Source: Methanoregula sp.
GTDB lineage: Archaea > Halobacteriota > Methanomicrobia > Methanomicrobiales > Methanospirillaceae
Assembly (NCBI RefSeq): GCF_028712425.1
Contig: NZ_JAQTQD010000004.1
Location: 34,925 to 98,924, forward strand
Reading direction: 5' to 3'
Length of the DNA: 64,000 nt
A model generated the notes under the pieces. It had not been told where the DNA came from and ran no database searches. It worked only from the letters and a program-made list of their open reading frames with translations. Positions 7,479 through 34,660 of this stretch are shown piece after piece (position 1 is the stretch's first letter; the number at the start of each line of letters is the position of its first letter). A program made the position numbers and the translations under genes.

Positions 7479-8621
7479 ATGCCCTTGAAAGCGATTATTG
7501 ACGGGGAAACAATAATCGGTCCTGATCTCTCAAAAGACGAATGGGCAGAGCTGAAGATCCGGCATAAAAAAGGGCTCCCGGTCAGGATGTGCTGCTGTGG
7601 TGCCCCGGGGCATTTGCGGACAATAAAAGGAACTCAGCATTTTTACCATGCGGCTGATACCGGATGTCCCCATGACAACGAATCAAAAGAACACCTGGAG
7701 ATCAAATATCTCATCTACAGGATTTGTCAGGCCGAACAATGGGAGACCTCGGTAGAATTCCCTTCAGCAGATCGTACATGGATCTCCGATGTTTTTGCAC
7801 AGAAGGATGGAAGGAAGATCGTTTTTGAAATCCAGTTGAGTCCTATCCCATCATCAGACCTGCTGACCCGCGATAAGAAATACCGGGATGAAGGGATTGA
7901 GTCGTACTGGCTTTTAAACAACTACCTTGACCGGGCAAAAGAATTCAAGTCATGGTATGACAGCCTTGTTTACCCTGATGATGACCGGAGGAAGGAACGA
8001 ATCCCGTATATCGATCGCTCATTCTTTTTCACCGGGACCGAGAACCACCTTTTCATTGCCAAGAATATCCGGACGGTCGGGCTCCGTGCGAAAAAGCAGA
8101 CGCTCTACACCACCAATAATCCGGAAATTCCGCTTGCAGTCTGGGTGCGGGAAGTCCTGAAAGGAAACTACCAGAAGTATCTCCAGGAAAGCGCCGCGAT
8201 CTTTCAACGAAAACATGAATTGAGATCCCAAGCCTCTCCTGCGTTGCTCCGGTTAAGGGATTTTTATCAGAAGATTATCCGTGATGAAATCTATCAGGAA
8301 AAGGTCAGGAAGTATTACCGGAAAATAGCTGGAACGGAATGGTTGAGGGACGATAGTGTAGTGCAACAAAAATTCCGGGAAATTTCTGATGAAACCGACT
8401 GGCTCAAGCGGGAATATGAAACGATTATGTCTGAAAGTTATGGTTTGTTCTCCTGGAAAAAACTCCCGGGGTACAGTACATCATACCCGGTTTTCCGGCT
8501 TGAATCGGAAGCGAAGATCAAAAAACTGGATGAGTGTGTCCGGATATTCTCGCAATGGGAGCATGCGTTCGATGATGCCCTTAGAAAGCTTGACCGGGAG
8601 ATAACGGCACGGGGGGAGTGA
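7479..8621 (+). CDS. CoiA-like nuclease-family protein
   Basis: Predicted nuclease of the competence protein CoiA-like family. From an ATG at 7479 (380 aa; a GTG at 7422 is possible but has a badly spaced ribosome site) it starts MPLKAIIDGE. A small Cys/His cluster follows (MCCCGAPGH, HFYH, GCPHD), then ESKEHLEIKYLIY and a PD-(D/E)XK-like core: a Glu in TSVEFP, Asp in ISDVFAQ and EIQLS. The C-terminal 200 residues are charged and helical. CoiA itself promotes recombination during bacterial transformation; relatives occur widely and their roles are unclear. It stands alone, just after copy II of the dispersed element, and converges on the VWA gene. Confidence 0.75.
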   Translation: MPLKAIIDGETIIGPDLSKDEWAELKIRHKKGLPVRMCCCGAPGHLRTIKGTQHFYHAADTGCPHDNESKEHLEIKYLIYRICQAEQWETSVEFPSADRTWISDVFAQKDGRKIVFEIQLSPIPSSDLLTRDKKYRDEGIESYWLLNNYLDRAKEFKSWYDSLVYPDDDRRKERIPYIDRSFFFTGTENHLFIAKNIRTVGLRAKKQTLYTTNNPEIPLAVWVREVLKGNYQKYLQESAAIFQRKHELRSQASPALLRLRDFYQKIIRDEIYQEKVRKYYRKIAGTEWLRDDSVVQQKFREISDETDWLKREYETIMSESYGLFSWKKLPGYSTSYPVFRLESEAKIKKLDECVRIFSQWEHAFDDALRKLDREITARGE

Positions 8622-8986
8622 GGGGCGGGGGTGCCGGGGACAAGGTCGTCCGGTGGGTTCTCCGAGAATTTTTGTCGTAAATAGCACAAATTGGCTGGAC
8701 GATCACGAGGCTGCACGAGGCCTTGGCAGGGGCGTTTGAACTAGGAGGCGGTTTTTCGCTGGGCCACAACCGGGGGAGTTTGAAAAACGATGATTGGAGA
8801 ATTATTTTCTTTTGCCACCTGATTTTGTTGGGGCATGATTTGGGTTCATCTGGTTTGATCGATTATCCGCGGCAGATTTGTGACTCGCGTTGTTCGGGTT
8901 CTTTACATTAGCTCGCTGATTTGCTGCCATTGTATTCCACCGGAATGAGTATAGGAAAAAAATGTTTAATACCTTTGTGCAAAAAA
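8622..8986. other. Convergent intergenic region
   Basis: Lies between two genes ending towards each other. Apart from the 30-bp motif at 8634-8664, I see only unstructured sequence. There is no gene here. Confidence 0.5.
8634..8664. repeat. 30-bp dispersed motif, copy 2
   Basis: Partner of 5748-5777, with the same core GGACAAGGTCGYCCGGTGGG, again next to G-rich runs and outside genes. Confidence 0.7.
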
Positions 8987-11104
8987 TTACCGTCCGATTC
9001 GGGGGGATTTGGAACGGTCTTTCTTCTTTGTTTTTTCTGGATTATTTGGTGATGCAATAAACCGGATCATCGTTGCAGGACTATTCCTGATAGACCAGTT
9101 CTGGTCCCTTTGGATGAAATAGGTATAATCAGAAATGGGTGTCAGCCCCCCGGCCGAATGATGGTCAACAATCAGGGAAAAGACTCTGGCTTCCTGGTCT
9201 TCTTTTACTTTTTTCCACTCATTAATGAGAGCCTGATCTGAAATTGCTGAATCACCATCGGTGATGAAAAGTAAATCAGCACCTTTGAAGGCCGGTTGCT
9301 TTAATGATTCCAGACCGGATTTCAATGCGGTATTGAAGTCAGTTCCTCCGCCAAAGGTTCCCTGCAAGAACTTCAGGAATTCTGTTGCCATTTTCTTCTT
9401 TGATGTCAGTTCGATTTCATCGGTAGTGTTCCGTCCGGAAAACAGGATTACCTTGACATCCCGTTCCTGTTTGATCATCTTTTTCGTTAGTGCAAGGATG
9501 ACAGATTTTGCCACGACTTCCGGAGTTCCCTGCATCGAGCCCGATGTATCAACAAGTGCGACAACCGGCCCCTGCTCTTTTTTCTTTGGGGGACCATCTG
9601 TCCAGTTTTTTCCCCGCAGGTTGTAGGTGAGAAGTTTACCTTCCGTAAAATCAGCATACAGTTTTTTCCTGAGGAGCGGGTGATGAAATTTCACCGCTTC
9701 CATAGGCAACATGCGGGAGATATCGTTCGAGCGTGTGATCGAATGGACTTCCGATCGACCCATCGGGGAGATTGATTGCTTTTTTATTCCATATTCCAGT
9801 TCTATCCGCCCGATAAGCCAAAGGATCTCTTTGAGTTCAGCGTTCTTTTCAACAATTTTTGCATATTTTTCCAGGTTGGCGATATATTCCTGTTTCAATG
9901 AGGTTGAATCCAATCCCCATTGATTTGCCGGGAAAAGCTGAGCAAGGAAGTCAATCGTTTCAAGATGCGGGCGAAGTGTCTGAAGCATTTGATTAACCGG
10001 ATCAAAAACTGATTTTTGCATAAGTGCCTGGAGCATCTTTTCGGTGTTCGGCATCTTTGAAAAACTTGAGATATTTTCAGTCCTCGGTGAAGTTGACTTG
10101 GTTTGATCACCGTCTTGATTTTGTTTTTTCTCCTGAATCTGTCGGAGCATTTGTTGAATCATCTCATTCAGTTCGGAGGGACTCATCCGCTGCTCATTAC
10201 CCCCCTCCTCTCCTTGTGACCCCTGCCCCTCTGCGGGTTCACCTCCGGAATCCGATCCATTTTCTATCTCCGAATCTTCCGACCCGGCTTCTTGATTGTG
10301 AGATTCAGGATCCAGTGATTCCGGATTTTCTGAGATCTCTGTATCTTCGGCATCAGATGAATCAGTCAACTGATTACTGTCATCACCTTCAGGAATCTGA
10401 GTTTCTTCCTGACCAGCAGAGGCCAATTCGTTCTCGGCATCATCAACCGCTTTTTTTAATGCATCAATGAGATCATCGATCGCATCAGGATCAATTTCTG
10501 CATCTGTGTTTTCGACTGAATCTATAAGTTCCTGAAGTGAAGACAGGGGTTCTGATACTGAGTTACAAATTTGTTCAATAGATTCAGGAGGGATATCTCC
10601 GTCATGGGACATCCGGTTAATCAGTTCAGATAATTTTTGGAGCAGGTCGATGATCTCCTCATTCATTGAACCTGGGGGATTCTCAATTTCCTTGTTCCAT
10701 TGCTCCTCCGTTTCTTCAAGGAGTTTGGCAAATTGCGCGAGAAGATTCTGCATCTCCTCATCGAGATCGTTGTAGATCCCCTCCCGTATTTTCGGGAAAT
10801 TGTCGATGAGATCGAAGATTTTTGTAATAAACAATTCCGTGATTGGGGCGGCTGCTTCCGGAGATTCTGCAGCCAGTCCTTTAAGGGATTTCCAAAGATC
10901 CGAATGGCGGAGATGGATGAGCAGTGGGTAAAAAACTCCGTATCGCTGGATGAATTTCTTGGAGTCTTTGATCTCGATTGATTCTCCCTCAATCAGTTCT
11001 GCAACGAGGATTGATGCCAGATCCTCACGGACAGTTTGGGGAATATGGCGGGGTTGCGCTATTATTCCGTCGATAAGAATCTTGTTTTTTCGGGAATACT
11101 CCAT
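8987..11104 (-). CDS. VWA-domain protein, ViaA/CoxE-like partner of MoxR ATPase
   Basis: 705 residues, longer than classical ViaA. The N-terminal 230 residues are helical, residues about 230-310 are a very acidic Ser/Glu/Asp-rich linker, and a helical segment follows. The von Willebrand A domain is at about 510-690. Its metal site is complete: DTSGSM near 519, the Thr in GGGTDF near 600 and TDGDS near 625. Such proteins act as metal-dependent adaptors remodelled by MoxR ATPases. It begins 6 bp after the MoxR stop, in one operon with the MoxR and NYN genes. The acidic linker is unusual and might mimic nucleic acid or bind a basic partner. Confidence 0.85.
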   Translation of the reverse strand: MEYSRKNKILIDGIIAQPRHIPQTVREDLASILVAELIEGESIEIKDSKKFIQRYGVFYPLLIHLRHSDLWKSLKGLAAESPEAAAPITELFITKIFDLIDNFPKIREGIYNDLDEEMQNLLAQFAKLLEETEEQWNKEIENPPGSMNEEIIDLLQKLSELINRMSHDGDIPPESIEQICNSVSEPLSSLQELIDSVENTDAEIDPDAIDDLIDALKKAVDDAENELASAGQEETQIPEGDDSNQLTDSSDAEDTEISENPESLDPESHNQEAGSEDSEIENGSDSGGEPAEGQGSQGEEGGNEQRMSPSELNEMIQQMLRQIQEKKQNQDGDQTKSTSPRTENISSFSKMPNTEKMLQALMQKSVFDPVNQMLQTLRPHLETIDFLAQLFPANQWGLDSTSLKQEYIANLEKYAKIVEKNAELKEILWLIGRIELEYGIKKQSISPMGRSEVHSITRSNDISRMLPMEAVKFHHPLLRKKLYADFTEGKLLTYNLRGKNWTDGPPKKKEQGPVVALVDTSGSMQGTPEVVAKSVILALTKKMIKQERDVKVILFSGRNTTDEIELTSKKKMATEFLKFLQGTFGGGTDFNTALKSGLESLKQPAFKGADLLFITDGDSAISDQALINEWKKVKEDQEARVFSLIVDHHSAGGLTPISDYTYFIQRDQNWSIRNSPATMIRFIASPNNPEKTKKKDRSKSPRIGR

Positions 11105-11110
11105 TTTCCT

Positions 11111-12607
11111 TTACCGACCCCGTATTGACAATGTCTTGGACCTTTCGTCAGTAGTCGTTTCCACATCCTTCTGTTGGGTTGATGAAAAATTATTAAAAGA
11201 TCCGCGAACTAAATCCAGACTTTTCTCAAGATTGTATATTTGGTTCAGTTTTTGTTGTTGGACATGTGAGATTTCATCTTTGTCATGAGGAGTGATCCAA
11301 ATATTTGCCTCAAGATTTTTTTTCACCTGATCAAATTTGTCTTTAACCGATCTTCTCTGCCGAATATACTTCTCTTCAAGGGACTGGAATTCTTTTTGAT
11401 AGAGAATTCTTTTATCCGCGTTGATGCCCTCGATTGGGGAATAAGCATGTTCTTTTTTTAACTTTTCAATTATTTTTTCAAAATCTTCACCATCCTGGTA
11501 ATAATTACGATCGAGGGTAAATTTTGTTTTTTTATTGCGGTTATGATAATCTCGGAGTTCGGGGTAATTCTTGAAGTTCCCATTGGGATATCCACTACGA
11601 TCTACATAATAGACAGTTACTGGGAAATTCTCATCGCTGAGTATCTCAGTCTCCGAATCAACGAGGTTTTTAAAAGATTTTACATCATTTTCCAATTTCT
11701 CGGAATCGATACCTCCGGTAACGAGTCTCTGAATGATTAACGTTCTCAGGGCTGCCTTTTGATCCGGCACATCCCAGAGCATATGCTGCAGGAGAATCAG
11801 CATAGTCCGATCGACTTTCTTCCTCCCGTTCGCTGCTGCGGCAACTTTCAGCACATTGACAATCTTCTTCCAGCGTCGGTCAGAAATTCTGATGCTTTCA
11901 GTATCATCAGACTCCTTTCGTTCCAGATCTCTTTTTAGTGAGAGGATGATATCCTGCACTTCTTCAGATAATTCAACGGATTGGGCATGAGCCCGGATTT
12001 TTTTGATCTCTTCAACATTGAGTTTGACCTTTGGAGAGAATTCCCCATTATTACTAAACAGCAGGGATTTGACATTGTCCTCGTTCTGAATATACCGGAC
12101 ATCATACCGGAACAGGAACCGGTCATAGAGTGCTTCCAGGTTCTCATCTTCTTCCGGCAACTCGTTCGATGCACCAAAGACCGTCAGAAGAGGTGTATCG
12201 ATAACCTCTGTTCCATTGTGGAACCGACGCTCATTGAGAATGGTGAGAAGGCTGTTGAGGATCGAACTGTTTGCCTTGAAAATCTCATCAAGGAGTGCGA
12301 TATGCGATGTCGGAAGACAACCATCGGTTTTGCGTTTGAACTCATCCTTCTCAAGGGATTTGATTGAGAGCGGCCCGAAGATCTCTTCCGGGGTTGTAAA
12401 CCGGGTCAGGAGATAATAGAAGAACTGGGCTCCATCGATCGATTTACAGATATTCTGAGCCAGGTATGTTTTTGCCGTCCCTGGAGGCCCAAGATAGAGG
12501 ACATTTTCATTGGCAAGAATCGCGAGGATTGCGCCAAGGATCTCTTCATCACGTTCGATAAAATGCTCTTTGAATTCTGTATGTAATGCCTGAATTTCTT
12601 CTTTCAT
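11111..12607 (-). CDS. MoxR-family AAA+ ATPase, RavA-like
   Basis: A hexameric-type AAA+ remodelling ATPase. The start is set at 12607 (MKEEIQALH, with GGAAGTGAG before it), giving 498 residues, the size of RavA. Walker A is GPPGTAKT (about 40-47), followed by the MoxR-typical TPEEIFGPLSI and Walker B ALLDEIFKAN, then FGASNELPEED. The C-terminal third is helical and charged, as in the RavA accessory region. The downstream VWA gene is its expected partner. An upstream in-frame ATG at 12667 would overlap the NYN gene and lacks a ribosome site. Confidence 0.88.
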   Translation of the reverse strand: MKEEIQALHTEFKEHFIERDEEILGAILAILANENVLYLGPPGTAKTYLAQNICKSIDGAQFFYYLLTRFTTPEEIFGPLSIKSLEKDEFKRKTDGCLPTSHIALLDEIFKANSSILNSLLTILNERRFHNGTEVIDTPLLTVFGASNELPEEDENLEALYDRFLFRYDVRYIQNEDNVKSLLFSNNGEFSPKVKLNVEEIKKIRAHAQSVELSEEVQDIILSLKRDLERKESDDTESIRISDRRWKKIVNVLKVAAAANGRKKVDRTMLILLQHMLWDVPDQKAALRTLIIQRLVTGGIDSEKLENDVKSFKNLVDSETEILSDENFPVTVYYVDRSGYPNGNFKNYPELRDYHNRNKKTKFTLDRNYYQDGEDFEKIIEKLKKEHAYSPIEGINADKRILYQKEFQSLEEKYIRQRRSVKDKFDQVKKNLEANIWITPHDKDEISHVQQQKLNQIYNLEKSLDLVRGSFNNFSSTQQKDVETTTDERSKTLSIRGR

Positions 12608-12638
12608 TAGCTCACTTCCAAAAAAATTTAAAAACGGA

Positions 12639-13439
12639 TTACTTTTTGGATTTCTTTGCCTTTTCACGGATGTAAATTATTTTTCCTGGTTGGTCTTTGG
12701 ATTGTTTTTCATCAATTTCAAATAAATCAAGCGTTTTGATCAGATCATATAATTTCTTAAACCCGTAATTCCGCGCATCAAACTCAGGCATCGTCTTCTG
12801 GAGATTATTGCCGACAAGACCGAGTTCCGCCCATCCTTCATTATCCGATGAATCTTCAACACTGTTCTTTAACTTTGTCAGGAATTTTTTGTCATTTTTG
12901 GCCGGGTTAATTCCGGTGTTCTCGTTCTGGATGGCTGCCGGTGATTCTATTGATTCAGTCGAACGCAGGATTTCCGTGTACGTGAATTTATCACATGCAT
13001 CAACGAAGGGTTTCGGGGTTTTCTTTTCACCGAACCCGTACACGATCAGACCGGACTCACGGATCCGTGATGCGAGACGGGTGAAATCGCTGTCACTGGA
13101 AACGATACAGAAACCATCCAGGTTATTGGCATGAAGCAGATCCATTGCATCGATGATCAATGCGCTATCCGTTGCATTTTTTCCCGAGGAATAATTGAAC
13201 TGCTGGATGGGGACGATTGAATGTGCCAGTAGTACATCCTTCCACGGCTGAAGCTGCGGCGTGGTCCAGTTTCCGTAAATCCTTTTTACCGATGCTATCC
13301 CGTACTTGGCAACTTCTTCAAGAAGATTTTTGATGATACTTGCCTGGGCATTGTCAGCATCGATAAGCACGGCCAGTTTTTTCTGGCGCTCGATAGGCAG
13401 AGAAATGTAATCCATTACTTCAACATTTATTTGAAACAT
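12639..13439 (-). CDS. NYN-domain ribonuclease-like protein with LOTUS/OST-HTH domain
   Basis: A LabA/DUF88-type PIN-like protein of 266 residues. The NYN domain (about 15-165) shows the acidic pocket: LAVLIDADNAQ, ATDSALIIDAMDLL and IVSSDSDFTRLASRIRE. The C-terminal domain (about 190-255) ends with ARNYGFKKLYDLIKTLDLF, the hallmark of LOTUS/OST-HTH domains that bind RNA, including G-rich RNA. So it is probably an RNA-directed nuclease or RNA-binding protein. It is the first gene of the operon with MoxR and VWA (31 bp to the MoxR start). The pairing of an RNA-processing domain with MoxR-VWA is notable. Confidence 0.85.
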   Translation of the reverse strand: MFQINVEVMDYISLPIERQKKLAVLIDADNAQASIIKNLLEEVAKYGIASVKRIYGNWTTPQLQPWKDVLLAHSIVPIQQFNYSSGKNATDSALIIDAMDLLHANNLDGFCIVSSDSDFTRLASRIRESGLIVYGFGEKKTPKPFVDACDKFTYTEILRSTESIESPAAIQNENTGINPAKNDKKFLTKLKNSVEDSSDNEGWAELGLVGNNLQKTMPEFDARNYGFKKLYDLIKTLDLFEIDEKQSKDQPGKIIYIREKAKKSKK

Positions 13440-14181: not shown

Positions 14182-15051
14182 ATGGCAGAGCTGGATCCAT
14201 TTTTTCATAAAATCAATTCCTGGTCCTTCACCAAACACCGGGTCTGGAACCGTTGCCAGCGCCAATATTATTTTGAATACATTGCCCCGTACGTGAAGAC
14301 GAGTCCGGTTGTTCCTCCGGAAAAAATCCGGTGGCTCAAGAATTTCACGTCAAAGTTTGTTATCCAGGGCCAGCTCATTCACGATATCATCGACCAGCAG
14401 ATCCAGTTCCATTGCGAAGAGCGGCCGATGAAACCGGAAGAGGCGATGAAGGCGTTTGTGAAAAAAGTTGCAGCGTTCAAAACTATCTGTGGCGAGACTT
14501 TCACGGAATATCACAATGGCGAGAAGATCTCGGTCTCGTTCTTTTCAGCAATGGAGGAGAACGGGAAAACCTGCCTGCATACGTTCTTTGGCAAGTGGCC
14601 GGAGTACGCGAAACAGGAATGCCTGCGCCACGAGGAGTTCGATCATTTCACCACCGGTAATGTAAGCGTGACAGTCAAGGTGGACTTTGTCGGGAAGATG
14701 CCGGACGGCACACTTATCCTTACGGACTGGAAGACCGGGCGGGACGATGACGAGTACGAGTCGGAACTCCAGATGGCTGCGTATGTTCTCTGGGCACGCA
14801 ATCATTACCTGAAGAGTGCCGATGAGATCGCGACCGAACTCGTATTCCTGAAGACCGGGAGGGTGAAACCGTACTCGTTTTACCCGGAGGAATTGCAGGA
14901 CAAAGAAGAATTGATTCAGGGAGAGTTTGCGGCGATGAATGCATCGTATGAGTACGAGAATTTTCCGGCAAGTCCTTCTGCCCGGGAATGCATGAGTTGT
15001 AAGTTTGCGGAAGTTTGTCCGGATCGCACCCTAAAAAAAGAAGCGAAGTAA
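14182..15051 (+). CDS. PD-(D/E)XK nuclease, RecB/Cas4-like with iron-sulphur cysteines
   Basis: 289 residues. The nuclease core is VKVDFVGKM ... LILTDWKTG ... ELQMAAY, matching the Asp, Asp-x-Lys and Gln-x3-Tyr motifs of RecB-type nucleases. A Cys near the N-terminus (NRCQRQYYF, C25) and three near the C-terminus (C270, C273, C279 in CMSCKFAEVC) match the Cys-x(n)-Cys-x2-Cys-x5-Cys iron-sulphur cluster of AddB and Cas4. It probably trims or resects DNA ends. No cas genes or CRISPR array are nearby, so it is not called Cas4. It converges on the DnaQ-like exonuclease with a 17-bp gap. Confidence 0.85.
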   Translation: MAELDPFFHKINSWSFTKHRVWNRCQRQYYFEYIAPYVKTSPVVPPEKIRWLKNFTSKFVIQGQLIHDIIDQQIQFHCEERPMKPEEAMKAFVKKVAAFKTICGETFTEYHNGEKISVSFFSAMEENGKTCLHTFFGKWPEYAKQECLRHEEFDHFTTGNVSVTVKVDFVGKMPDGTLILTDWKTGRDDDEYESELQMAAYVLWARNHYLKSADEIATELVFLKTGRVKPYSFYPEELQDKEELIQGEFAAMNASYEYENFPASPSARECMSCKFAEVCPDRTLKKEAK

Positions 15052-15068: not shown

Positions 15069-15647
15069 TTATTGGATTATTCCCTGTTTCTTCAATGCGA
15101 AATAACACCGTGCACATGCCTCGACATCAGCCCCGGCATTGTGGCTGTCAGTAAATCCCTCGCCGAACAATTGCATGTGCAGCTCGTTTAAGGTTGGCCA
15201 CTTGTATCCCCGGCCCGACTTTGCCGGCAGTTTACAGAACTCCACAATCTCCCGGGGTTTCATCGTGCAGCACGGTTCCTTTTTCAACAGCCCCGTCTCT
15301 ATTTTGCACCGCGAAAACTCGGTATCAACGATCGGCAGGTCATAATCCAGGTTATGGGCGATGATCCTTGTCGCTTTCATGACATCGGCATTGAACTGTG
15401 GAAGCACTTTATAGAGCGACGTGCCCTCGGCCCGGGCCCGCTCGGTCGTGATGCCATGGATCCGGGCAGCGTCCATGGGGATGGAAAAGTCCGTCGGGTA
15501 AATGATGAAACTGTTCTGACTTTGTCGGGTGCCTTCTTTGTCATATAACGACCAGGCCAGCTGGACGACCCGTGGCCATTTCTTTACCGGATCGATCTCG
15601 AAGTTTTTCGGGAGGCCGGTGGTTTCAGTGTCGAAGAAAAGGAACAT
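15069..15647 (-). CDS. DnaQ-like 3'-5' exonuclease
   Basis: 192 residues with the three Exo motifs of the DEDDh family: FFDTETTG (D6, E8), AHNLDYDLPIVDTE, and SHNAGADVEACA with the catalytic His and Asp. Single-domain members act as proofreading-like or trimming exonucleases on DNA or RNA. It lies between the RecB/Cas4-like gene (convergent) and the TerB operon (divergent), so it shares a promoter region with the latter. It is not obviously part of a replicative polymerase. Confidence 0.88.
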   Translation of the reverse strand: MFLFFDTETTGLPKNFEIDPVKKWPRVVQLAWSLYDKEGTRQSQNSFIIYPTDFSIPMDAARIHGITTERARAEGTSLYKVLPQFNADVMKATRIIAHNLDYDLPIVDTEFSRCKIETGLLKKEPCCTMKPREIVEFCKLPAKSGRGYKWPTLNELHMQLFGEGFTDSHNAGADVEACARCYFALKKQGIIQ

Positions 15648-15804
15648 AATGTCACTTTGTAATAATCATATTTATTTTACTCGACCAATTGACACTTTTT
15701 TTTGAAATCAGATGTACGAGAAAATCTCATTTCTCGGGGGAATTCTCATCCTGCAATTTTTTTCAAATCAATTTTATAGATTCAATACAAAAGGAGAATT
15801 TGTT
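15648..15804. promoter_or_regulatory. Divergent promoter region, exonuclease and TerB operon
   Basis: AT-rich spacer with TATA-like tracts near 15662-15676 and 15753-15775. AAGGAG at 15791-15796 sits correctly before the ATG at 15805 and decides that start over the upstream in-frame ATG at 15712. Confidence 0.45.
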
Positions 15805-19527: not shown

Positions 19528-19544
19528 TTTTTTGGAACACTACG

Positions 19545-27096: not shown

Positions 27097-27097
27097 A

Positions 27098-30000
27098 TCA
27101 GGTCTCCTCCCCCGACTGGAATACCCGGTACGGATCGAAGCGGCAGATCTGTCTGAATTCACAATACGTATTCGGGCATTCCTCTTCAGCCGGCAGCGGG
27201 AAGCGGCCGTTCCGGATCCCTTCGATGTAGGCAAAGGCACAGTCACGGGAGTGCTGGATCGTGCCGGAAAAATCTGCAGATGGACGAACACGGGAGATCA
27301 TCAGGTCCTTTGCAGACGGATCCGCGAGCACGAGACTCCGGGTAATCTCGCGCCGTATTTTATAATATCCCCCGCCAACACCGTGATTGCCGGATATCGT
27401 TTCGAATGCTGAAAGATAGAGCGGCAACTGCAGGGCAGTTCCGGCCTCGATCTCTTTTGCTTTGGGATGCTGCAGGCCGGACTTGTAATCATAGATCACG
27501 AACTGCCCATCAGGTGTAAGATCGACCCGATCGATCCGGCCCCGGATGAACATCTTCTGTCCGCCATCCTGCGAAACAAGTTCAACCGGTTCCGGAACAG
27601 ATGACGGATCATCTGATTCACCCGCCTCCATGCCAAAGGAGAATTCAAATCGCGAGGGAATGAGCGGTGAATTTTCTTCACCCGCTTCATTGATTAAAAA
27701 TCTCTCAAAGTATCCGGGCCCGGTATATTTGTCCCCAAGCATCAGGATCCGGGTCGCGTCCCAGAGCGGGCTCTGGAAGGAATACTGTGCCAGTTCTTCC
27801 GATGCGATCTTCAGGATCATTTCCGTGGCATCGTTCAATGAAGCGAGACTGACCTTGTTGTGACCGGCAGAACGCCACTGCCGGTAAAAGGCACTCAGGA
27901 TATCGTGGATGGCAGTTCCGCGATCGCTGGCTGAGAGATTCGGCTCTACTTCCGGTAATTCTTTGAGATTGATCACCCGGCCTAGGAAGTAGGCAAATGG
28001 GCAGTTGGCATAGGTCTCAAGGCTTGTCGGGGAATACACGTGATCCGGCCCATAGTGACCAGCAAGTGCTTCCTGAATTGTCTCATCGCCGGACAGGATG
28101 CCATCATACGATGAATCACACACGCCGGTCCGGTGATACCGTTCCATGTTGACGCGTTCTGCGAGATTGTCAATCCCGAGAGCATCCGGAATCATTTCAA
28201 GTGCTTCGCAAACCTTTGCGTCACGGATCAGGGAACCCGCTTCGATAGCAGCGGTATGACGGGATGCCGATCGTGCGGTGGCGTCTGCATCGGGCCAGGG
28301 AGAATTTCCAATTCTCATCTTTACGCGTTCAAAGAATGCGGAGGTGAGCAGGGGCTTTTCCCCGTCGGCAAGCGGGGCACTGAGGTAAACGGTCTTCTGC
28401 GCAGAGAGAATCGCCGCAAGGAAAAAATACTGTTCCTCCCGGAGGATCTCGGAAAGGGAACGGGTTCCCATGCGGGCATTTTCGAGCGTGTTGGTGAACG
28501 GGAGCCGGGTTGTCAGTCGGGGAAACGTACCTTCAACCAGTCCCCCGATAAAGACAACCGGGAACCTTAGGTGCTGAGATTCGCGAAGGCCAAGCACCGT
28601 AACTCCATCAGAATCTTCAAGCCCGCTCTCATCCGGCTCTTCGGTAATGGAAGTGATATAGCGGGAGAATGCACCGGCAGTGATTACCTCATCATCAGGG
28701 AGCCATGCAGCCTTTTCAAGTGCCTCAAGCCGGGAACAGAACTTCTGATAACTCTGGATCTCCCGGTCCTTTGTCGGTTCATCGGGTGCAGAATACAGGT
28801 GCGGGATATTCCACAATGCCAGGAACGAGCGGAATCCCCGGATATGATCCCGGAGATTTTTCTTTCCTGCCAGAATTTCCAGGTCCGAACGGAAAACCTT
28901 CAATCCTTCCGCAACACGTTCAACGGTCTGAACCGAGATACCCGGGTAGTTCCTGGCTTTTTTCGGATCTCTCAATTCCCGGTGGAGCCATTCCAGCTGC
29001 CGGTCCCACGAAGGGTGGGGCCCGTCAATCCCGGCGTACCGGGATACAAGATCAACTTCAGCGGCATCAAGATGTGCGGTCCCTCCCGGGACAGCAGAGC
29101 GGAAATAAGGGCTGCCCACAACCCGGACAACATCCTCCCGGGAAAATCCTCTTTCGCCGATACCGGCAATCGCTATGAGAAACTGGATGACCGGCGCCTG
29201 GGAAAGCCGGGGGCCGATCCCTGCATTCCAGGGAATCCCAAAATCCGAGAAAACCTCTTCAATAATTCCATAATTCTCCCGGAGATCCGGAAATGCCACG
29301 GCAATAGAAGAAAGAGGAGTCCCGCTGGCATTCAGCCGGTGGATTTCAGCCGCGATTCCATATACTTCGGCATAGCGCGAGGGGAAGGTACGGAGCCGGA
29401 AAAATTCTCTCGCATCCAGGTGTGTGCTGCTGGAAAAGAGACCGGTGATCTGAGATCGTACTGAAGAAGGATCGCATGACGGCGGTTGTCCGGAATTGTG
29501 TCCATCTGGGAGATGACTCCGGAAAATATTCCGATCAAGACCATCGGGAATACTCTGAAAAACCGTTCCGGCATGGTCCCGGATTGCCTCAAAAAGATCC
29601 TGTTCAATCGGCAAAGGTTCATGGAATCCGTAGATGAAAATCGTTCCGAGCAAGGATAGTTCGCAACGGTTTACCTGATTGATTGTCCATTGAACGATCG
29701 TATCGCTGTCAACCAGATCGAGATCTCTCAAGCTATCCCGGTAAAGGGTTATGATCGCATCGAGCTGATCGCTCTTCTCGCTCTGTAAACCGACGAGACA
29801 TTCAGGAAAGGCAACTTTCCTTGTGAAGGTGACGTTCATAAACATCAGGAGATCATCCACAGTTCCTGGGGAAGGATGATTGCGATTTACAAAGAATCGG
29901 ACGTTTTCTCTGTTCTCTTCCAGTAACCGGGAAAGTAATAGTTTGGATTCGCTTTTTGACAGGAGACGTTCGGTTGTCCGGTTCTCTTCAAACAGGATCC

Positions 30001-30238
30001 TGCAGAATCCCTTGAGGGTACAGATACGGGAAGGAATGAACGGAATATTGTTTCTGATCAGGTGATCGGTAACCTCAAGGACAAGTCTCTCCGTGGGCAG
30101 AAGGAGCCATGTTGTGAAGGAATCTTCCTTTGCAGTTGCAACAAAACGATCGATAACCGAATCCAGCTTTTCCCCGGGAAGTCCGTAATCGAACGTGACT
30201 GCCCGATTCTCGGATTCCGGAGAAAATCTTGCTGGCAT
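27098..30238 (-). CDS. AddB-like PD-(D/E)XK nuclease / inactivated helicase
   Basis: 1046 residues. It has the AddB layout: a degenerate superfamily I helicase core, and a C-terminal RecB-type nuclease (about 745-1046) with AIHDILSAFY, RGRIDRVDL, FVIYDYKSG and LQLPLYLSAF. Four Cys, one in TYANCPFAYF and three in CPNTYCEFRQIC, match the AddB iron-sulphur staple. The N-terminus shows no Walker A GxxGxGKT motif, so ATP hydrolysis is doubtful and AddA would be the motor. The stop is one base from the AddA-like start, implying coupled translation. Confidence 0.87.
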   Translation of the reverse strand: MPARFSPESENRAVTFDYGLPGEKLDSVIDRFVATAKEDSFTTWLLLPTERLVLEVTDHLIRNNIPFIPSRICTLKGFCRILFEENRTTERLLSKSESKLLLSRLLEENRENVRFFVNRNHPSPGTVDDLLMFMNVTFTRKVAFPECLVGLQSEKSDQLDAIITLYRDSLRDLDLVDSDTIVQWTINQVNRCELSLLGTIFIYGFHEPLPIEQDLFEAIRDHAGTVFQSIPDGLDRNIFRSHLPDGHNSGQPPSCDPSSVRSQITGLFSSSTHLDAREFFRLRTFPSRYAEVYGIAAEIHRLNASGTPLSSIAVAFPDLRENYGIIEEVFSDFGIPWNAGIGPRLSQAPVIQFLIAIAGIGERGFSREDVVRVVGSPYFRSAVPGGTAHLDAAEVDLVSRYAGIDGPHPSWDRQLEWLHRELRDPKKARNYPGISVQTVERVAEGLKVFRSDLEILAGKKNLRDHIRGFRSFLALWNIPHLYSAPDEPTKDREIQSYQKFCSRLEALEKAAWLPDDEVITAGAFSRYITSITEEPDESGLEDSDGVTVLGLRESQHLRFPVVFIGGLVEGTFPRLTTRLPFTNTLENARMGTRSLSEILREEQYFFLAAILSAQKTVYLSAPLADGEKPLLTSAFFERVKMRIGNSPWPDADATARSASRHTAAIEAGSLIRDAKVCEALEMIPDALGIDNLAERVNMERYHRTGVCDSSYDGILSGDETIQEALAGHYGPDHVYSPTSLETYANCPFAYFLGRVINLKELPEVEPNLSASDRGTAIHDILSAFYRQWRSAGHNKVSLASLNDATEMILKIASEELAQYSFQSPLWDATRILMLGDKYTGPGYFERFLINEAGEENSPLIPSRFEFSFGMEAGESDDPSSVPEPVELVSQDGGQKMFIRGRIDRVDLTPDGQFVIYDYKSGLQHPKAKEIEAGTALQLPLYLSAFETISGNHGVGGGYYKIRREITRSLVLADPSAKDLMISRVRPSADFSGTIQHSRDCAFAYIEGIRNGRFPLPAEEECPNTYCEFRQICRFDPYRVFQSGEET

Positions 30239-30360
30239 GATATGTAATTTTCAACCTGCCGGAAGAAAAAAGATGGGGGATTTTTATTATAAGAATTAAG
30301 ATGTGTGGACGTCTCGATCATCTTAATGATAACAAATTTTATCTCAAAATTTTTTGAATG
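30239..30360 (-). promoter_or_regulatory. Promoter region of the AddB-AddA-like operon
   Basis: AT-rich spacer. On the minus strand CTTATAATAAAAATC (about 30279-30294) is a plausible TATA box, 40-55 bp before the AddB-like start. Confidence 0.4.
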
Positions 30361-33069
30361 TTATGACAATTTACCATCAGATGGAACACTAATTACATGT
30401 CCCTTAATTCCAGTATATGGCGTATCATTACAAGTTGCCACAATTATCTGGCACGAGTTATTTGACACTTCTTGTAGAATTAAACTTAACCGTTTCATTC
30501 GCATGGGATCGGCATTTACCAAACGATCATCGATTACAACGAGGTTACGTTCATTTTTACTCAAGATGACACCTAACGCCAATCTTAAAAGCACGACAAT
30601 TTGTTCATGCGTCCCATAACTCAAACTGTCCAATGGTAATTGTGTACCATATCTGTTACTTTGAATTGCAATTGGTAATAATTCCTCATTAAGCTCCAAG
30701 CCCGCATATGAATCATCGGTCAACATGACAAGGTACCGATTCACTAACTCACTGATCGGTCCAGCAAGCATGGTTGATTGTTCTTTTCTGAGAGCAATTA
30801 CCATATCATGCAATAATTTTATTGAATTTGCTTCGAGTTGGACACTCGCCAGTCTGCGTTTTTTTGTTTCAAGGAGCCCCTCAAGATCTGATATTTGAGA
30901 ATACAAACCCTGTGCAGCTGACTCTTCAATTCGAGCATTACGATCAATAATTTGGTTTTCATTAGTCCTAATTTGCTCTTCGAGAGCTGTGACTTTATGT
31001 TCTCCTTCAGCATACAGTTTTCGAGGAAGAACAACCATTTTTTCATAATCCATTAAAATATGATTAAGATCGCCAGTAGCTGTCGATAAGAGGTTACGGT
31101 TTTTCTCAATAAGAGTGACCAAATTATCACGAGAACCATAATTTTTAAGCGATTCTACATTTTCATTATTTAAACTGTTAATTTCTGAATTGCTGCGCTC
31201 AAATTTACTCCGTTCATCGATTGCATTCTGAATTAATGCTCGGGATTTATCTCTTGATGATTTTTCCATTAATTGTTCTTTTTCTATATCCTCGACCAGC
31301 TGTTTTTTTGTTTTTTCTGTCTGGATAATTTTTTCACGAAGGCCTTTGCCAGACAATTTTTTCCAAGTCGCTGGTGCACTTTCTATAGATTGCGATTCTT
31401 CAGCAATTTCCTGCTCTAAACGTCTGAACTCGTCATCAGAATTCTTACCTTTATTTTCATCGAGAAGGGTATCCAAGTTTTTCTTAAGTTGTTTTACTTC
31501 TCTTTCTAAGTCGATCCTATTCTGATAACGATCAGAAAGATCCTGTTTATTTCTGACATTAAACCGAGAGAAGGTATTTTGGATACTTTTTTGGAATGAT
31601 TGTGATTTCTCGATGATCTCTTCAAGAGACGATCCGCCACCTCTAACATGAATCTTACCTATTTTTTTAATGTCAAATATTGTCGGGGTTAGGACCGAAT
31701 ATTCGTGTTTAACATCGGTATGGGATGCTGTTGGTGTAGATCTAATATCCGAATCCTCGATGTTCAGGTCAAATTTTATACGAATTGCACTCGCTTTTGC
31801 TTCTGCTTCCACTCTCTGAAATTGATCCCAACTTTCTTCAAATTCGTGCCATTCATGTTTTGAGGGCGCAATTAATTCAGTAAGTTTTTTCTTTTTTATT
31901 TTGTATTCTTCATCGGCTTTAGATAATTTTGAAAGGTATTCATGTAAAATTTCTTTTGAGTTTTCCAATCGCGAAAGATTTTCTATTTTATGTAACAACG
32001 ACAACTCATCTTCAATCTTTTTTAACTGGGGTTCAAGATCATTTTTCCACTTTTGATGATATTTTTCTTCGGTATTTTGTTCAATCCTGGAATCAGCTTC
32101 GCATCGTTCTGCAACTTCTTTTGCTTCAGATAATTTCTGATTTAATTCATAAATTATTTTGATACGCCGATCGATCGTTTTTAATTCTTTCTCAAGGCCA
32201 CTTATTTTATTGTTTAATTCCGTTATTTCAGAGTCTTTCACGCGTTTTTGATCTTCAATTCTGTCGGCATTCTCTAATTGTTGTTTTTGACTGGTCAACT
32301 CATGTTGTGCAGTTATCAAGGAATTCTGTTTTTCTTTTTTTATCTCGTAGAATCCCTCAAGTTCTAAACGAAGGTTCTCTACATTGGAAGCCTTTATCCG
32401 AAGATCTTCAAACTCATTTTCTTTCTGACTAATTTCTTCTCTAAGGCTGGCAAGCTCACAACCAGATTTTATTTTCCCACTTTGAGATGTCCAATATCGA
32501 TCATAAAGATCATCAATTGAAGTGCATATCGCATCTTCTTCAGGACGTTTTATAACAAATTCGATTATTCCAGCAAGATCTTGTTTGATCCCATCAGCCC
32601 ACACTTTTTTTGGGAGGGGATCTTCATTCTGCAAATACCACAATGCTTGTGCCAATCCCCGGTGTTCAGGTTGAGATGCTCTGCTGGATGAATTTCCCTT
32701 AAGGATCTTTTGAAGTTCAATATCTGCTTTATCACCCTCGTGATCCAATTCCCAACGACCATTTCGTTCTGAGCTAAGTTCACTGATTGGGGCATGAAGG
32801 AATCGCTTTTTAATTTTTAATCGCTTACCATTATCAATAAAAATTATCTCAGCTTCGGGACCTAGTGAACTATTCAAAGGTTGAATTTTTCTAATTTCTT
32901 CCGCTTTTGATGAAAAACGATCAAACATTACCCTCGCAAGTGCTTCGAATAATGTTGATTTCCCGGCCTCGTTTCTTCCAACAACAAGGTTAAACCCCTT
33001 ATCAAAAGAGAAGGTATGGGGTTCCCTGTATCCTCTCCAATTTTTTAGGGAGATTTGTTCAATGATCAT
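30361..33069 (-). CDS. SbcC/Rad50-like coiled-coil ATPase without zinc hook
   Basis: 902 residues. N-terminal Walker A GRNEAGKST (about 31-39), some 650 residues of coiled coil, then the C-terminal half-site with signature LSYGTHEQIVVLLRLA in place of LSGGE, and Walker B NLVVIDDRLVNAD with Asp-Asp where most ABC enzymes have Asp-Glu. No Cys-x-x-Cys zinc hook is visible in the coiled coil. These traits fit YhaN-type relatives of SbcC better than canonical Rad50. It follows its SbcD partner with a 4-bp ATGA overlap. Very AT-rich. Confidence 0.85.
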   Translation of the reverse strand: MIIEQISLKNWRGYREPHTFSFDKGFNLVVGRNEAGKSTLFEALARVMFDRFSSKAEEIRKIQPLNSSLGPEAEIIFIDNGKRLKIKKRFLHAPISELSSERNGRWELDHEGDKADIELQKILKGNSSSRASQPEHRGLAQALWYLQNEDPLPKKVWADGIKQDLAGIIEFVIKRPEEDAICTSIDDLYDRYWTSQSGKIKSGCELASLREEISQKENEFEDLRIKASNVENLRLELEGFYEIKKEKQNSLITAQHELTSQKQQLENADRIEDQKRVKDSEITELNNKISGLEKELKTIDRRIKIIYELNQKLSEAKEVAERCEADSRIEQNTEEKYHQKWKNDLEPQLKKIEDELSLLHKIENLSRLENSKEILHEYLSKLSKADEEYKIKKKKLTELIAPSKHEWHEFEESWDQFQRVEAEAKASAIRIKFDLNIEDSDIRSTPTASHTDVKHEYSVLTPTIFDIKKIGKIHVRGGGSSLEEIIEKSQSFQKSIQNTFSRFNVRNKQDLSDRYQNRIDLEREVKQLKKNLDTLLDENKGKNSDDEFRRLEQEIAEESQSIESAPATWKKLSGKGLREKIIQTEKTKKQLVEDIEKEQLMEKSSRDKSRALIQNAIDERSKFERSNSEINSLNNENVESLKNYGSRDNLVTLIEKNRNLLSTATGDLNHILMDYEKMVVLPRKLYAEGEHKVTALEEQIRTNENQIIDRNARIEESAAQGLYSQISDLEGLLETKKRRLASVQLEANSIKLLHDMVIALRKEQSTMLAGPISELVNRYLVMLTDDSYAGLELNEELLPIAIQSNRYGTQLPLDSLSYGTHEQIVVLLRLALGVILSKNERNLVVIDDRLVNADPMRMKRLSLILQEVSNNSCQIIVATCNDTPYTGIKGHVISVPSDGKLS

Positions 33070-34196
33070 TTCATCCCCCCCCTCCGAAATGAACGAAGCA
33101 TACTTTTAGCTTTTTGAACTACGGCACGATCTTCTCCCGCAAAGACATTGCAGGGGGGTTGTGGAATCTTCCCCAATAAAATATCAGTTAGTGCTTCATT
33201 CACTCCTTGAACAAGACCTTCAGGCAATTGCGCCTCTAAATCCGGATTAACAGAGATCTCCACTTGTTCCCACTGCAAAAAAAATGCCATCTCATCCAAT
33301 TCATCGCGAAGTGTTTTCAGCTGTTGAAAAACGCGATCATCGTGCTGAATATGAATACGGAGATTGATTCGTATTACTAATGTTGAATATGATCCGAGTG
33401 CCTTTAATTTCTCTTCAAATTTTTCTAAATCTGTAATGTCTTGAATATCCAATGAAAATTTTGCCCAAGTTAATGTGGAACATCTTAATTTTTCGAAATT
33501 TGGGGAAACCTGTGGTGCAGGAATATCCACAATCACAATATTTCCGGAATCGGGTTCATCATAACTTGTCGGTTCGAATGTACCTGGATAGATACTGCGA
33601 CCATATTGAGAAAAGCTATGCCAGTCCCCAAGAGCGAGATAATCCAGACCTTTGTCATCAGCACATTTTATTGATATTGGAAAATTTATTTCCCCGGGTA
33701 AACTGTCCAATGATCCATGAGCTATCCCGATACGAATTTTCTCATCAGTGATGGCTCTTTTCGGTATCCATGATGTTGGGTCAAGACTGCTACGCTTTTG
33801 TTTTACAGGACATGGAAAGATAGCCACATTACTTCCCAAGTCGATCTCCTCCTCAACAGTGAGTAAATGGATATGCGAACCTACTCTCTGCCAGCTAGTA
33901 CGATCCCAGATTCCACCGGGAATATATGGATCATGGTTCCCAGGAAGTATGAATACTGGAATTGGAGCAAATTGATTTAGAATGTCAACAGTTTTTTTTA
34001 CGACAACTTCATCGACGTCTGGGTGTTCAAAAAGATCTCCTGCAATAAGCACAAAACCTACTTTTTTTTGTTGAGCAATATTTACGATTTTTTGAGCGGT
34101 TACATATCGTTTTAACCTGATTTCTTTTGATTTATTTCCTGTATGTACCGCACGCATTCCCATCTGCCAATCTGCGGTATGAAGAAATCTGACCAT
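33066..34196 (-). CDS. SbcD/Mre11-like metallophosphoesterase nuclease
   Basis: 376 residues with calcineurin-type phosphoesterase motifs in order: LHTADWQMG, GDLFEHPD, LPGNHDPY, IAHGSLD, LALGDWHSF. In the first motif Gln stands where many SbcD/Mre11 proteins have His (Asp-x-His), which may alter one metal site or mark a subfamily. The C-terminal 120 residues form the capping and partner-binding region. The gene overlaps the SbcC-like gene, so the pair should form a complex at DNA ends. It diverges from the truncated Rad50-like remnant. Confidence 0.87.
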   Translation of the reverse strand: MVRFLHTADWQMGMRAVHTGNKSKEIRLKRYVTAQKIVNIAQQKKVGFVLIAGDLFEHPDVDEVVVKKTVDILNQFAPIPVFILPGNHDPYIPGGIWDRTSWQRVGSHIHLLTVEEEIDLGSNVAIFPCPVKQKRSSLDPTSWIPKRAITDEKIRIGIAHGSLDSLPGEINFPISIKCADDKGLDYLALGDWHSFSQYGRSIYPGTFEPTSYDEPDSGNIVIVDIPAPQVSPNFEKLRCSTLTWAKFSLDIQDITDLEKFEEKLKALGSYSTLVIRINLRIHIQHDDRVFQQLKTLRDELDEMAFFLQWEQVEISVNPDLEAQLPEGLVQGVNEALTDILLGKIPQPPCNVFAGEDRAVVQKAKSMLRSFRRGGMK

Positions 34197-34201
34197 CCTT
34201 T

Positions 34202-34660
34202 TTGCCCCCAGTAATGACGGTATTATTTTTATTGAATCTTCAATACTTCGATATTCCCTCCAATTCGAAATTTACTATTGGCTTCAATGACCTATCGAGA
34301 ATTTTTGCGAATGTGATCTTCAACCTCCTTGTGCGGGACATTGACAACGATTACCCCATCGAGCGTTTCAGCGGGGGCGAACAGGACGACATCGCAGTCG
34401 CCTTAAGAATCGCCCTCTCGCGGTACCTTGCCGAGCTCCACCAGGTCCACGAGTCAACGTTCCTCATCTTTGATGAGATCTTCGGGAGCCAGGACGAGGA
34501 GCGGAGAGCGAACCTCTTAACTGCACTTCGCACGCAGGAGTCCCGGTTCCCGCAGATTCTCTTGATCTCGCACATCGCCGAGATCCAGGGTGAATTCGCC
34601 AACACGCTTGTTGTCGAGATGGGCACGGACAGCGCGAGCCGGGTGCGGGAAGCGGAATGA
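34202..34660 (+). pseudogene. Truncated C-terminal remnant of a Rad50/SbcC-type ATPase
   Basis: Only the last part of an SMC/Rad50-type ATPase remains. It has signature RFSGGEQDDIAVALRIALSR, Walker B STFLIFDEIFGSQD and D-loop, then LLISHIAEIQGEFANTLVVEM. A normal protein would have hundreds of residues before this, with Walker A and a coiled coil. Real similarity seems to start near 34290, where composition switches from AT-rich to GC-rich; the first 25-30 codons look like chance reading of island DNA. The signature is canonical and unlike the neighbouring SbcC-like protein, so this is a remnant of a different, probably native gene. Confidence 0.82.

What the first reader, a model, noticed from the sequence alone, without database searches (positions are those of the whole stretch)
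7479..34660. A 27-kb DNA-processing island with four or five independent end-processing modules
Sequence: thirteen intact genes in a row are all nucleases, helicases or ATPases (CoiA-like, VWA, MoxR, NYN-LOTUS, RecB/Cas4-like, DnaQ-like, TerB-N/C, DUF2791, Lhr-like, OLD, AddA-like, AddB-like, SbcC/SbcD), with no metabolic gene between them. Composition shifts from gene to gene, AT-rich for TerB, OLD and SbcC/D and GC-rich for AddA/B, which suggests separate acquisitions. Knowledge: OLD, DUF2791/BrxHI-type helicases and TerB systems are tied to antiviral or DNA-processing functions. Inference: this is a defence hotspot.
Basis: partly seen in the sequence, partly recalled or inferred. Interest (0 to 1): 0.85.

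Follow-up and report, generated by a model that had tools for sequence, protein, structure and literature searches.

The report
AddAB replaced Mre11-Rad50 beside defence genes
In this methane-producing archaeon the usual archaeal machine for trimming broken DNA ends appears to have been replaced, at its own chromosomal site, by a bacterial-type one (AddAB) with a swappable helper, right beside a slot where related genomes keep different antiviral systems.

Summary
The genes are real, but the 27 kb is not one island of independent modules. It has two parts.

(1) The right half (23764-34657) lies where related Methanoregula genomes keep the archaeal end-resection operon Mre11-Rad50-NurA-HerA. 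Here Mre11 and Rad50 are gone. In their place stand SbcD-like, SbcC-like, AddB and AddA genes in a row, and the last 113 codons of rad50 remain beside them. NurA and HerA survive 6 kb away. Of 59 good family genomes, 22 have AddB, 27 a non-truncated Rad50 hit, one both, 11 neither. In the Methanoregulaceae AddB clade, 22 of 22 loci with upstream DNA carry exactly one helper of three types, interleaved on the AddB tree.

(2) The left half is a defence slot: Shango plus an OLD nuclease here; SIR2-HerA, DRT, Lamassu or candidate systems in relatives; Gabija beside one intact Mre11-Rad50 operon.

'Defence hotspot' holds for the left half. AddAB has the composition of the genome and alternates with Mre11-Rad50. 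Displacement is well supported; that AddAB plus helper does the lost machine's job is inferred. I found no paper describing it in the open-licence library searched.

The parts
14182..15051 (+). PD-(D/E)XK (Cas4/RecB-like) nuclease; recurrent neighbour of the locus
   Evidence: PF12705 1.2e-22; homologues near AddA in G081, G086, G057, G007 and near Mre11 in G144
15069..15647 (-). DEDDh exonuclease; recurrent neighbour of the locus
   Evidence: PDLC01247 9.9e-24; homologues near AddA in G081, G086, G057
15712..18156 (+). SngA of Shango (TerB_N, TerB, TerB_C)
   Evidence: PDLC03958 2.9e-58
18181..19527 (+). SngB of Shango (BrxC/D-like ATPase)
   Evidence: PDLC03959 4.7e-160; Walker A GRYGSGKS
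19545..21710 (+). SngC of Shango (DEAD/H helicase)
   Evidence: PDLC03960 2.4e-237
21887..23710 (+). OLD-family nuclease (ATPase plus TOPRIM)
   Evidence: PDLC02358 Old 2.3e-70; PF13175 and PF20469
23764..27096 (-). AddA-type helicase-nuclease, 1110 aa from ATG 27096
   Evidence: TIGR02785 9.1e-105; Walker A AGAGTGKT and a DYK nuclease motif; start
27098..30238 (-). AddB-type subunit with C-terminal nuclease domain and conserved cysteines
   Evidence: PF12705 1.4e-39, TIGR02773 2.2e-26; invariant D-Y-K and three invariant Cys in 10 archaeal sequences
30361..33069 (-). Helper part 1: hookless SbcC/Rad50-like ATPase, 902 aa
   Evidence: PF13175 2.2e-13, PF13514 2.5e-6; Walker A, SYGTHEQ signature, no CXXC hook
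33066..34196 (-). Helper part 2: SbcD/Mre11-like phosphoesterase, 376 aa
   Evidence: PF00149 9.8e-11; Mre11-like metal motifs with two substitutions
34319..34657 (+). Fossil: last 113 codons of canonical archaeal rad50
   Evidence: 93% aa identity to full-length Rad50 of G017 at this site; sharp homology start at about 34318; ORF 34202-34660
40401..41417 (+). NurA nuclease, retained
   Evidence: 44% identity to G021 NurA over residues 4-343; that NurA has PF09376
41371..43017 (+). HerA translocase, retained
   Evidence: PF01935 2.3e-22
46188..48498 (-). Right-flank anchor genes (46188, 47057 and the formate/nitrite transporter 47593)
   Evidence: Anchor 47593 found in 36 of 40 genomes, own included; PF01226; synteny
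8987..13439 (-). VWA, MoxR and NYN-OST-HTH genes, left of the nuclease pair; role not resolved
   Evidence: Pfam; no PADLOC model for MoxR or NYN, one weak ZorA match for VWA

Best explanation
The right half of the block is the chromosomal home of the double-strand-break end-resection machine. The ancestral operon there was Mre11-Rad50-NurA-HerA. In the window's lineage Mre11-Rad50 has been displaced by an AddAB-type helicase-nuclease together with one helper module, here a hookless SbcC/SbcD (SbcEF/YhaN-YhaO-like) pair. The last 113 rad50 codons remain at the junction and NurA-HerA remain about 6 kb away. In this AddAB clade each locus that could be checked has one helper of three types, and helpers have been exchanged repeatedly. 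The left half is a separate defence slot whose content turns over (Shango and OLD here). Shown: locus identity, alternation of the two machines, fossil, helper rule, helper exchange, cargo turnover. Inferred: AddAB unwinds and trims ends to give 3' tails for the archaeal recombinase RadA, while the helper nuclease opens blocked or hairpin ends, which was Mre11-Rad50's job; both may also degrade foreign linear DNA, which would suit a position next to antiviral systems.
For: Same anchor genes flank either operon. G021 has Mre11-Rad50-NurA-HerA at the site. The window has a rad50 tail and no Mre11 hit in its genome at E 1e-10. Of 108 family genomes: 5 both AddB and non-tail Rad50, 35 AddB only, 44 Rad50 only, 24 neither (p 9e-8); of the 59 good ones 1, 21, 26, 11 (p 4.5e-7). 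Rad50 or HerA tails beside AddAB also in G013, G081, G086, G001, G003, G007 and, in another genus, G125/L156. Exactly one helper in 22 of 22 clade loci with upstream DNA, labels interleaved on the AddB tree. Defence models in 9 of 14 AddAB-type slots scanned, none in 10 right-flank control genes.
Against: Five genomes have both AddB and Rad50: G007, G010, G170 and G171 are 64-82% complete and G018 has distant Mre11/Rad50 elsewhere. In other families of the order AddB and Rad50 coexist (L178). 24 of 108 genomes show neither. p values ignore relatedness. G017 and G004 carry a Rad50 or HerA tail although an intact copy is present, so a tail alone does not prove displacement. The window's tail shows no decay, which is odd for an old fossil. 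Five of 14 slots gave no clear defence hit. AddA and AddB score below the NCBIfam cut-offs for the bacterial equivalogs. No activity has been measured.
Confidence: 0.74

Rival explanations
1. One reading: one 27-kb defence island of four or five independently acquired end-processing modules, AddAB and SbcCD included as antiviral cargo.
For: Defence cargo is adjacent; composition changes along the block and SbcC/SbcD are AT-rich; AddAB is patchy in the family (40 of 108).
Against: AddAB has genome-like GC and alternates with the core operon Mre11-Rad50-NurA-HerA at one locus; helper, AddB and AddA travel as one unit; AddB is an order-wide archaeal family separated from the 16 bacterial rows on the tree.
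Confidence: 0.1
2. Loss without replacement: Mre11-Rad50 decayed for its own reasons and AddAB, useful as a DNA-degrading enzyme, happened to settle in the same hotspot; the function lost is not carried out by AddAB.
For: 24 of 108 genomes show neither machine, 11 of the 59 good ones; outside this family both machines can coexist.
Against: Of 32 good genomes without a non-truncated Rad50 hit, 21 have AddB; AddB in this clade comes with a helper, two of the three helper types being Mre11-Rad50-like, while 30 of 30 loci of the distant AddB rows with at least 1.5 kb upstream DNA show none of these helpers.
Confidence: 0.13
3. OLD and AddA together are a Gabija-like pair (GajA plus UvrD-like GajB).
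For: PADLOC GajA and GajB models hit both.
Against: The two genes converge instead of forming an operon. The best PADLOC model for the OLD gene is Old (2.3e-70), and AddA matches the AddA model better (9.1e-105; best GajB 1e-49) and lies beside AddB throughout the clade. A genuine Gabija pair beside Mre11 in G114 scores 1.3e-239 and 1.1e-182.
Confidence: 0.03

Closest known systems
AddAB helicase-nuclease of Bacillota and Alphaproteobacteria
   Same: UvrD-type helicase with C-terminal nuclease (AddA) beside AddB with a second nuclease domain and conserved cysteines.
   Different: Archaeal branch, separated from the 16 bacterial rows of the tree and below NCBIfam cut-offs; comes with a helper upstream. 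The B. subtilis addBA-sbcDC gene order is recalled, not looked up; it is the nearest bacterial arrangement I know of.
Mre11-Rad50-NurA-HerA operon of archaea
   Same: Occupies the same chromosomal site in relatives; presumed same task (passages in PMC9960219; PMC7690668).
   Different: Different proteins; in the window only NurA and HerA remain, with a rad50 tail.
SbcEF (YhaN/YhaO) of Bacillota
   Same: Rad50-like ATPase without a CXXC hook and with a GTxEQ-type signature, paired with an Mre11-like phosphoesterase; weak AAA_27 match. SbcEF is listed as a break-repair component in PMC6452273 (passages).
   Different: Resemblance to YhaN is partly recalled; no direct comparison with YhaN/YhaO was run. 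Here the pair leads an AddBA unit.
Shango
   Same: All three proteins in order; TerB-like, ATPase and helicase parts as in PMC10250203 (passages).
   Different: None found at this level; host is an archaeon.
Core defence hotspots of Pseudomonas aeruginosa
   Same: Fixed chromosomal site with exchangeable defence cargo, Shango among it (PMC10250203, passages).
   Different: Here the fixed neighbour is the end-resection operon, which itself varies.

Membership tests
Shango | Adjacent SngA, SngB and SngC (TerB-like protein, ATPase, DEAD/DEAH helicase) | tested here: met
   PDLC03958, 03959, 03960 at 2.9e-58, 4.7e-160, 2.4e-237, same strand and in order
Shango | Anti-phage activity | not testable with these tools
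   no experiment
AddAB | UvrD-type helicase plus C-terminal PD-(D/E)XK nuclease in AddA | tested here: met
   PF00580 1.2e-53, PF12705 1.2e-4 just above its cut-off; Walker A and DYK motifs
AddAB | AddB with C-terminal nuclease and iron-sulphur cysteines, adjacent to AddA | tested here: met
   PF12705 1.4e-39; three invariant Cys of four listed; one base between the genes
AddAB | Score above NCBIfam equivalog cut-offs for bacterial AddA and AddB | tested here: not met
   AddA 351.7 vs 707.65, AddB 91.8 vs 903.7 bits; hence 'AddAB-type', not the bacterial equivalog
AddAB | ATP-dependent helicase-nuclease activity and recombinase loading | not testable with these tools
   no experiment
SbcEF (YhaN/YhaO) | Rad50-like ATPase without zinc hook beside an Mre11-like phosphoesterase | tested here: met
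   no CXXC in 902 aa; PF00149 neighbour with four-base overlap
SbcEF (YhaN/YhaO) | Direct sequence relationship to YhaN and YhaO | not tested
   only the PF13514 match 2.5e-6
Mre11-Rad50 (canonical archaeal) | Orthology of 30361-34196 to the Mre11-Rad50 of relatives | tested here: not met
   The canonical Rad50 query hit only the tail in this genome at 1e-20 and Mre11 nothing at 1e-10
OLD nuclease | N-terminal ATPase with C-terminal OLD-type TOPRIM | tested here: met
   PF13175 1.3e-38, PF20469 1.8e-17
RavA-ViaA | MoxR AAA+ ATPase beside a VWA protein, at NCBIfam cut-offs for RavA and ViaA | tested here: not met
   Similarity clear (2e-71, 4.3e-37) but 241.5 vs cut-off 681 and 128.4 vs 500 bits
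PD-(D/E)XK fold (helper c7 of relatives) | PD...(D/E)XK motif in an alpha/beta core | tested here: inconclusive
   invariant PDN...FDAK in 8 sequences; models at pLDDT 64 and 62; best structural matches McrC, Tk-TIP26, BspD6I at Z 5.9 or less, none at E 1e-3

The most novel reading that the evidence does not exclude
Methanoregulaceae run a plug-in double-strand-break machine: one core engine (AddAB) that must be paired with one exchangeable coiled-coil end-opening nuclease out of three designs. The whole machine can be swapped with Mre11-Rad50-NurA-HerA at the same locus. Turnover of engine, helper and neighbouring defence cargo is driven by the same pressure, viral inhibitors of end processing, so the repair locus itself behaves as a defence hotspot.
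Probability: 0.3. Interest if true: 0.82.

Novelty: new variant of a known kind. Interest (0 to 1): 0.64.

Why it matters
A review calls Mre11-Rad50 universally conserved (PMC7690668, passages), and NurA and HerA are essential in Saccharolobus islandicus (PMC12977600, passages). Here is an archaeal family in which a non-truncated Rad50 was not found in 32 of 59 good genomes, 21 of which have AddB, with gene fossils at several junctions and an intermediate state in the window (AddAB in, Mre11-Rad50 out, NurA-HerA kept). This is a natural experiment on whether a bacterial-type resection engine can feed the archaeal recombinase RadA, on what such an engine needs as a helper, and on why defence systems gather beside it. 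The slot beyond addA or mre11 is also a practical place to look for new archaeal defence systems.

Tried and rejected
Site-specific integration into the rad50 3' end was considered because the homology of four tails starts within 25 bases and G017 has an intact rad50 plus a tail. The DNA between them encodes an ABC-transporter ATPase and permease and two other proteins, none of which I recognised as an integrase when reading the four sequences (no family search was run on them). Common descent of one junction spread by recombination fits better but is not proven.

The fragment at 34202-34660 as a remnant of the hooked SbcC of relatives was rejected: about 30-36% identity to it against 79-93% to canonical Rad50 in the nine nearest genus-mates.

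NYN-OST-HTH/MoxR/VWA as a conserved three-gene defence system: of seven close MoxR loci (L068-L074) five show an adjacent VWA match (L068, L070-L073) and one an adjacent NYN gene (L068) (flanks of at most 1.5 kb). PADLOC gives no MoxR or NYN model. Left open.

Rad50 tails in G183 and G184 were not counted as fossils because they lie at contig ends (G184; G183: its match starts at base 1 of the contig).

A PDB profile search with helper c7 gave only coiled-coil-type matches, best E 0.0096. Foldseek gave nothing at E 1e-3. YeiH as a right-flank anchor failed, being found in 2 of 40 genomes, own included.

Paper searches for AddAB in methanogens or loss of Mre11-Rad50 there found nothing on the point; one search listed 10 of 94 papers, and the library is open-licence PubMed Central only, so this is weak evidence of absence.

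AddAB-type loci with a defence-model hit at 1e-20 or better: 9 of 14 (G000; G003 by homology to the window's Shango; G086; G081; G001; G018 candidate system; G006 accessory genes only; G013 candidate system; G057, a protein cut by the end of the fetched stretch). None in G007, G016, G041, G075, G216. Mre11-type: G114 yes, G144 no; G011 was not scanned..

Of 37 archaeal rows labelled 'none' in the tree, seven (L169, L172, L179, L185, L190, L195, L196) have under 1.5 kb upstream DNA, so 30 are real negatives.


Full report
What the sequence holds. Three are one known system: 15712-18156, 18181-19527 and 19545-21710 match SngA, SngB and SngC of Shango (2.9e-58, 4.7e-160, 2.4e-237). 21887-23710 is an OLD nuclease. 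23764-27096, 27098-30238, 30361-33069 and 33066-34196 are AddA, AddB, a Rad50/SMC-like ATPase and an Mre11-like phosphoesterase on one strand. The last two overlap by four bases, 122 bases separate SbcC from AddB, and AddA starts one base after the AddB stop. GC is 0.56 and 0.53 for AddA and AddB and about 0.57 on the right flank; most of the other block genes are AT-richer. No tRNA and no Rfam hit at gathering score was found in the window.

Which locus this is. The window lies in a 2.67-Mb genome on contig C18. A formate/nitrite transporter at 47593-48498 is a conserved anchor, found in 36 of 40 genomes, own included. In G021 the genes between this anchor and the variable left side include Mre11, Rad50, NurA (PF09376) and HerA (PF01935) in a row. 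In the window NurA (40401-41417) and HerA (41371-43017) are still there, Rad50 is a tail, and Mre11 gave no hit in the whole genome at E 1e-10. In G014, 87% identical to the window over a 9.3-kb test stretch, a rad50 open over 601 codons from the contig start is followed after about 57 bases by DNA that matches window 35973-36200, so part of the right-hand neighbourhood is older than the truncation.

Alternation of two machines. In the family, 108 genomes were searched for Rad50, AddB, NurA and Mre11. AddB matches in 40, Rad50 in 52, of which three are the tails in G000, G013 and G081. AddB and non-tail Rad50 occur together in five: G007 (64% complete), G010 (82% complete, with two full-length anchor copies, perhaps a mixed bin), G018 (Mre11 and Rad50 at 50% and 35% identity, elsewhere), G170 (73% complete, 4% contamination) and G171 (78% complete, distant AddB). 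35 have AddB only, 44 Rad50 only, 24 neither (p 9e-8). Among the 59 genomes at least 90% complete the numbers are 1 both, 21 AddB only, 26 Rad50 only, 11 neither (p 4.5e-7). Within the genus (39 genomes) they are 3, 10, 18 and 8 (p 0.015). These tests treat genomes as independent, which they are not. In other families of the order the two coexist more often: in the 16 genomes of other families in the relatives sample, several have both.

Fossils. Rad50 tails lie beside the AddAB unit in the window, G013 and G081, with homology starting at rad50 base 2097, 2083 and 2107. G086 keeps a 30-residue tail and NurA in two pieces. C-terminal HerA tails lie beside AddAB in G001, G003, G007 (at a contig end) and, in another genus, G125/L156. 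Against a simple story, G017 has a Rad50 tail as well as an intact Rad50, and G004 a HerA tail as well as an intact HerA. The window's tail shows no sign of decay (0 private amino acids, 8 private third-position changes in 112 codons), unlike G081 (6 private amino acids) and G013 (two TGA). Recent truncation, re-import or a kept use are all possible.

The helper rule. Beside AddB, on its upstream side, 22 of 22 loci of the Methanoregulaceae AddB clade whose upstream DNA is held carry exactly one helper: hooked SbcD-SbcC in 12, a protein called c7 here in 8, and the hookless pair in 2, the window and L156. In L158 and L162 only SbcC is visible before the contig ends. Four more clade loci are cut at that side and were not counted. 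In three (L147, L154, L160) the helper is divergent rather than in line. Outside the clade, 30 of 30 archaeal loci with at least 1.5 kb upstream DNA show none of the three helpers (seven more are too short to tell); G043, in another family, has the hookless pair in the same order. On the AddB tree (76 rows, 1068 columns, quick method, with some long branches) the labels interleave: WINDOW with G086, L156 with L157 and L147 with L153 are sisters across helper types with support 99-100. In nine relatives compared, the helper has lower GC than its AddAB in nine of nine. c7 is a long coiled coil followed by a domain with an invariant PDN...FDAK motif. Low-confidence models (pLDDT 64 and 62) match PD-(D/E)XK proteins best but weakly (Z at most 5.9). 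If right, all three helpers are coiled-coil nucleases, two of them of the Mre11-Rad50 kind. The window's SbcC has no zinc hook and an SYGTHEQ signature, which resembles the YhaN (SbcE) group (resemblance partly recalled). Its SbcD keeps most Mre11 metal motifs, with Q for H in motif I and D for H in motif V.

The defence slot. Beyond the 3' end of addA the content differs: Shango and OLD in the window; Shango in G003; SIR2-HerA in G086 and DRT in G081; Lamassu in G001; a candidate system in G018; accessory genes in G006; a candidate system in G013 and an RT-nitrilase-type protein in G057. In G114, which has the Mre11 operon, a Gabija pair sits beside mre11. A DEDDh exonuclease and a PD-(D/E)XK nuclease recur near the slot in G081, G086, G057 and the window. 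Ten right-flank genes of the window gave no PADLOC hit. Five of 14 AddAB-type loci scanned gave no clear hit.

Mechanism. AddA has an intact Walker A and a DYK nuclease motif. AddB has an invariant D-Y-K and three invariant cysteines across ten archaeal sequences. From the known work of AddAB (established knowledge) it should unwind and trim ends and leave 3' tails; in archaea these would go to RadA. The helper would open ends that AddAB cannot enter, which is the role of Mre11-Rad50. These steps are inferred. The window looks like an intermediate: AddAB and helper in, Mre11-Rad50 out, NurA-HerA not lost as in G086, where NurA is in pieces and no locus HerA was found. AddAB of the window and G086 is 82.6% identical where the test stretch of the flank is 93%, and AddB protein is 72% where AddA is 89%, which points to import of the allele with its helper by recombination.

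Literature. Passages, not whole papers, were read: archaeal resection by Mre11-Rad50 and NurA-HerA, with AddAB described for bacteria (PMC9960219; PMC12977600; PMC7690668); 88% of bacterial genomes in one survey with RecBCD, AddAB or AdnAB and only 16 genomes with both RecBCD and AddAB (PMC6452273); swaps of herA and mre11 families on the way to haloarchaea (PMC7599335); Shango and core defence hotspots (PMC10250203). None of the papers listed by the searches appeared, from its listing or the passages seen, to describe AddAB or this replacement in Methanomicrobiales.

Verdict. The defence-hotspot reading holds for the left half. The more interesting fact is the displacement of the archaeal end-resection machine at its own locus by AddAB with an exchangeable helper.

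Noticed in passing
L029:8414-9256 (contig C18, left of the window) versus window 13681-15051: A second copy of the PD-(D/E)XK nuclease (92% identity), with homologues of the two short ORFs that precede it in the window, about 54 kb away on the same contig.
   Followed up: no
L033/L154, downstream of intact AddA in G001: Three further pieces of an AddA-like gene (60-73% to the window's AddA) lie downstream of the intact addA, looking like a broken second copy, before the Lamassu genes.
   Followed up: no
window 34202-34660: The rad50 tail is an open frame with no private amino-acid change against ten intact relatives and one decaying tail, unlike the tails of G081 and G013; whether it is expressed is unknown.
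   Followed up: partly
L056-L057 (G017) and L063 (G004): An intact Rad50 (G017) or HerA (G004) is accompanied by a separate C-terminal tail of the same gene further along.
   Followed up: partly
L178 (Methanoculleus sp.): A distant-clade AddAB has Mre11-Rad50 about 6 kb upstream on the opposite strand, so the two machines coexist side by side there.
   Followed up: no
window 34849-40303: A YeiH-type transporter, a response-regulator protein and a pirin lie between the rad50 tail and NurA; the response regulator is also between them in G086.
   Followed up: partly
window 8987-13439: VWA, MoxR and NYN-OST-HTH genes lie head to tail (RavA-ViaA-like with an RNase-type partner); close MoxR homologues in 7 of 150 order genomes besides the window at E below 1e-59 and at least 47% identity, one of them (L068) with the NYN gene beside it.
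   Followed up: partly
family genomes G129, G175, G023, G192, G005: Short N-terminal Mre11 fragments (39 to 108 residues), some with stops or at contig ends, suggest further erosion at the other end of the operon.
   Followed up: no
window 6261-6764: HTH protein with weak similarity to Csa3/CARF regulators; no CRISPR array search was made.
   Followed up: no
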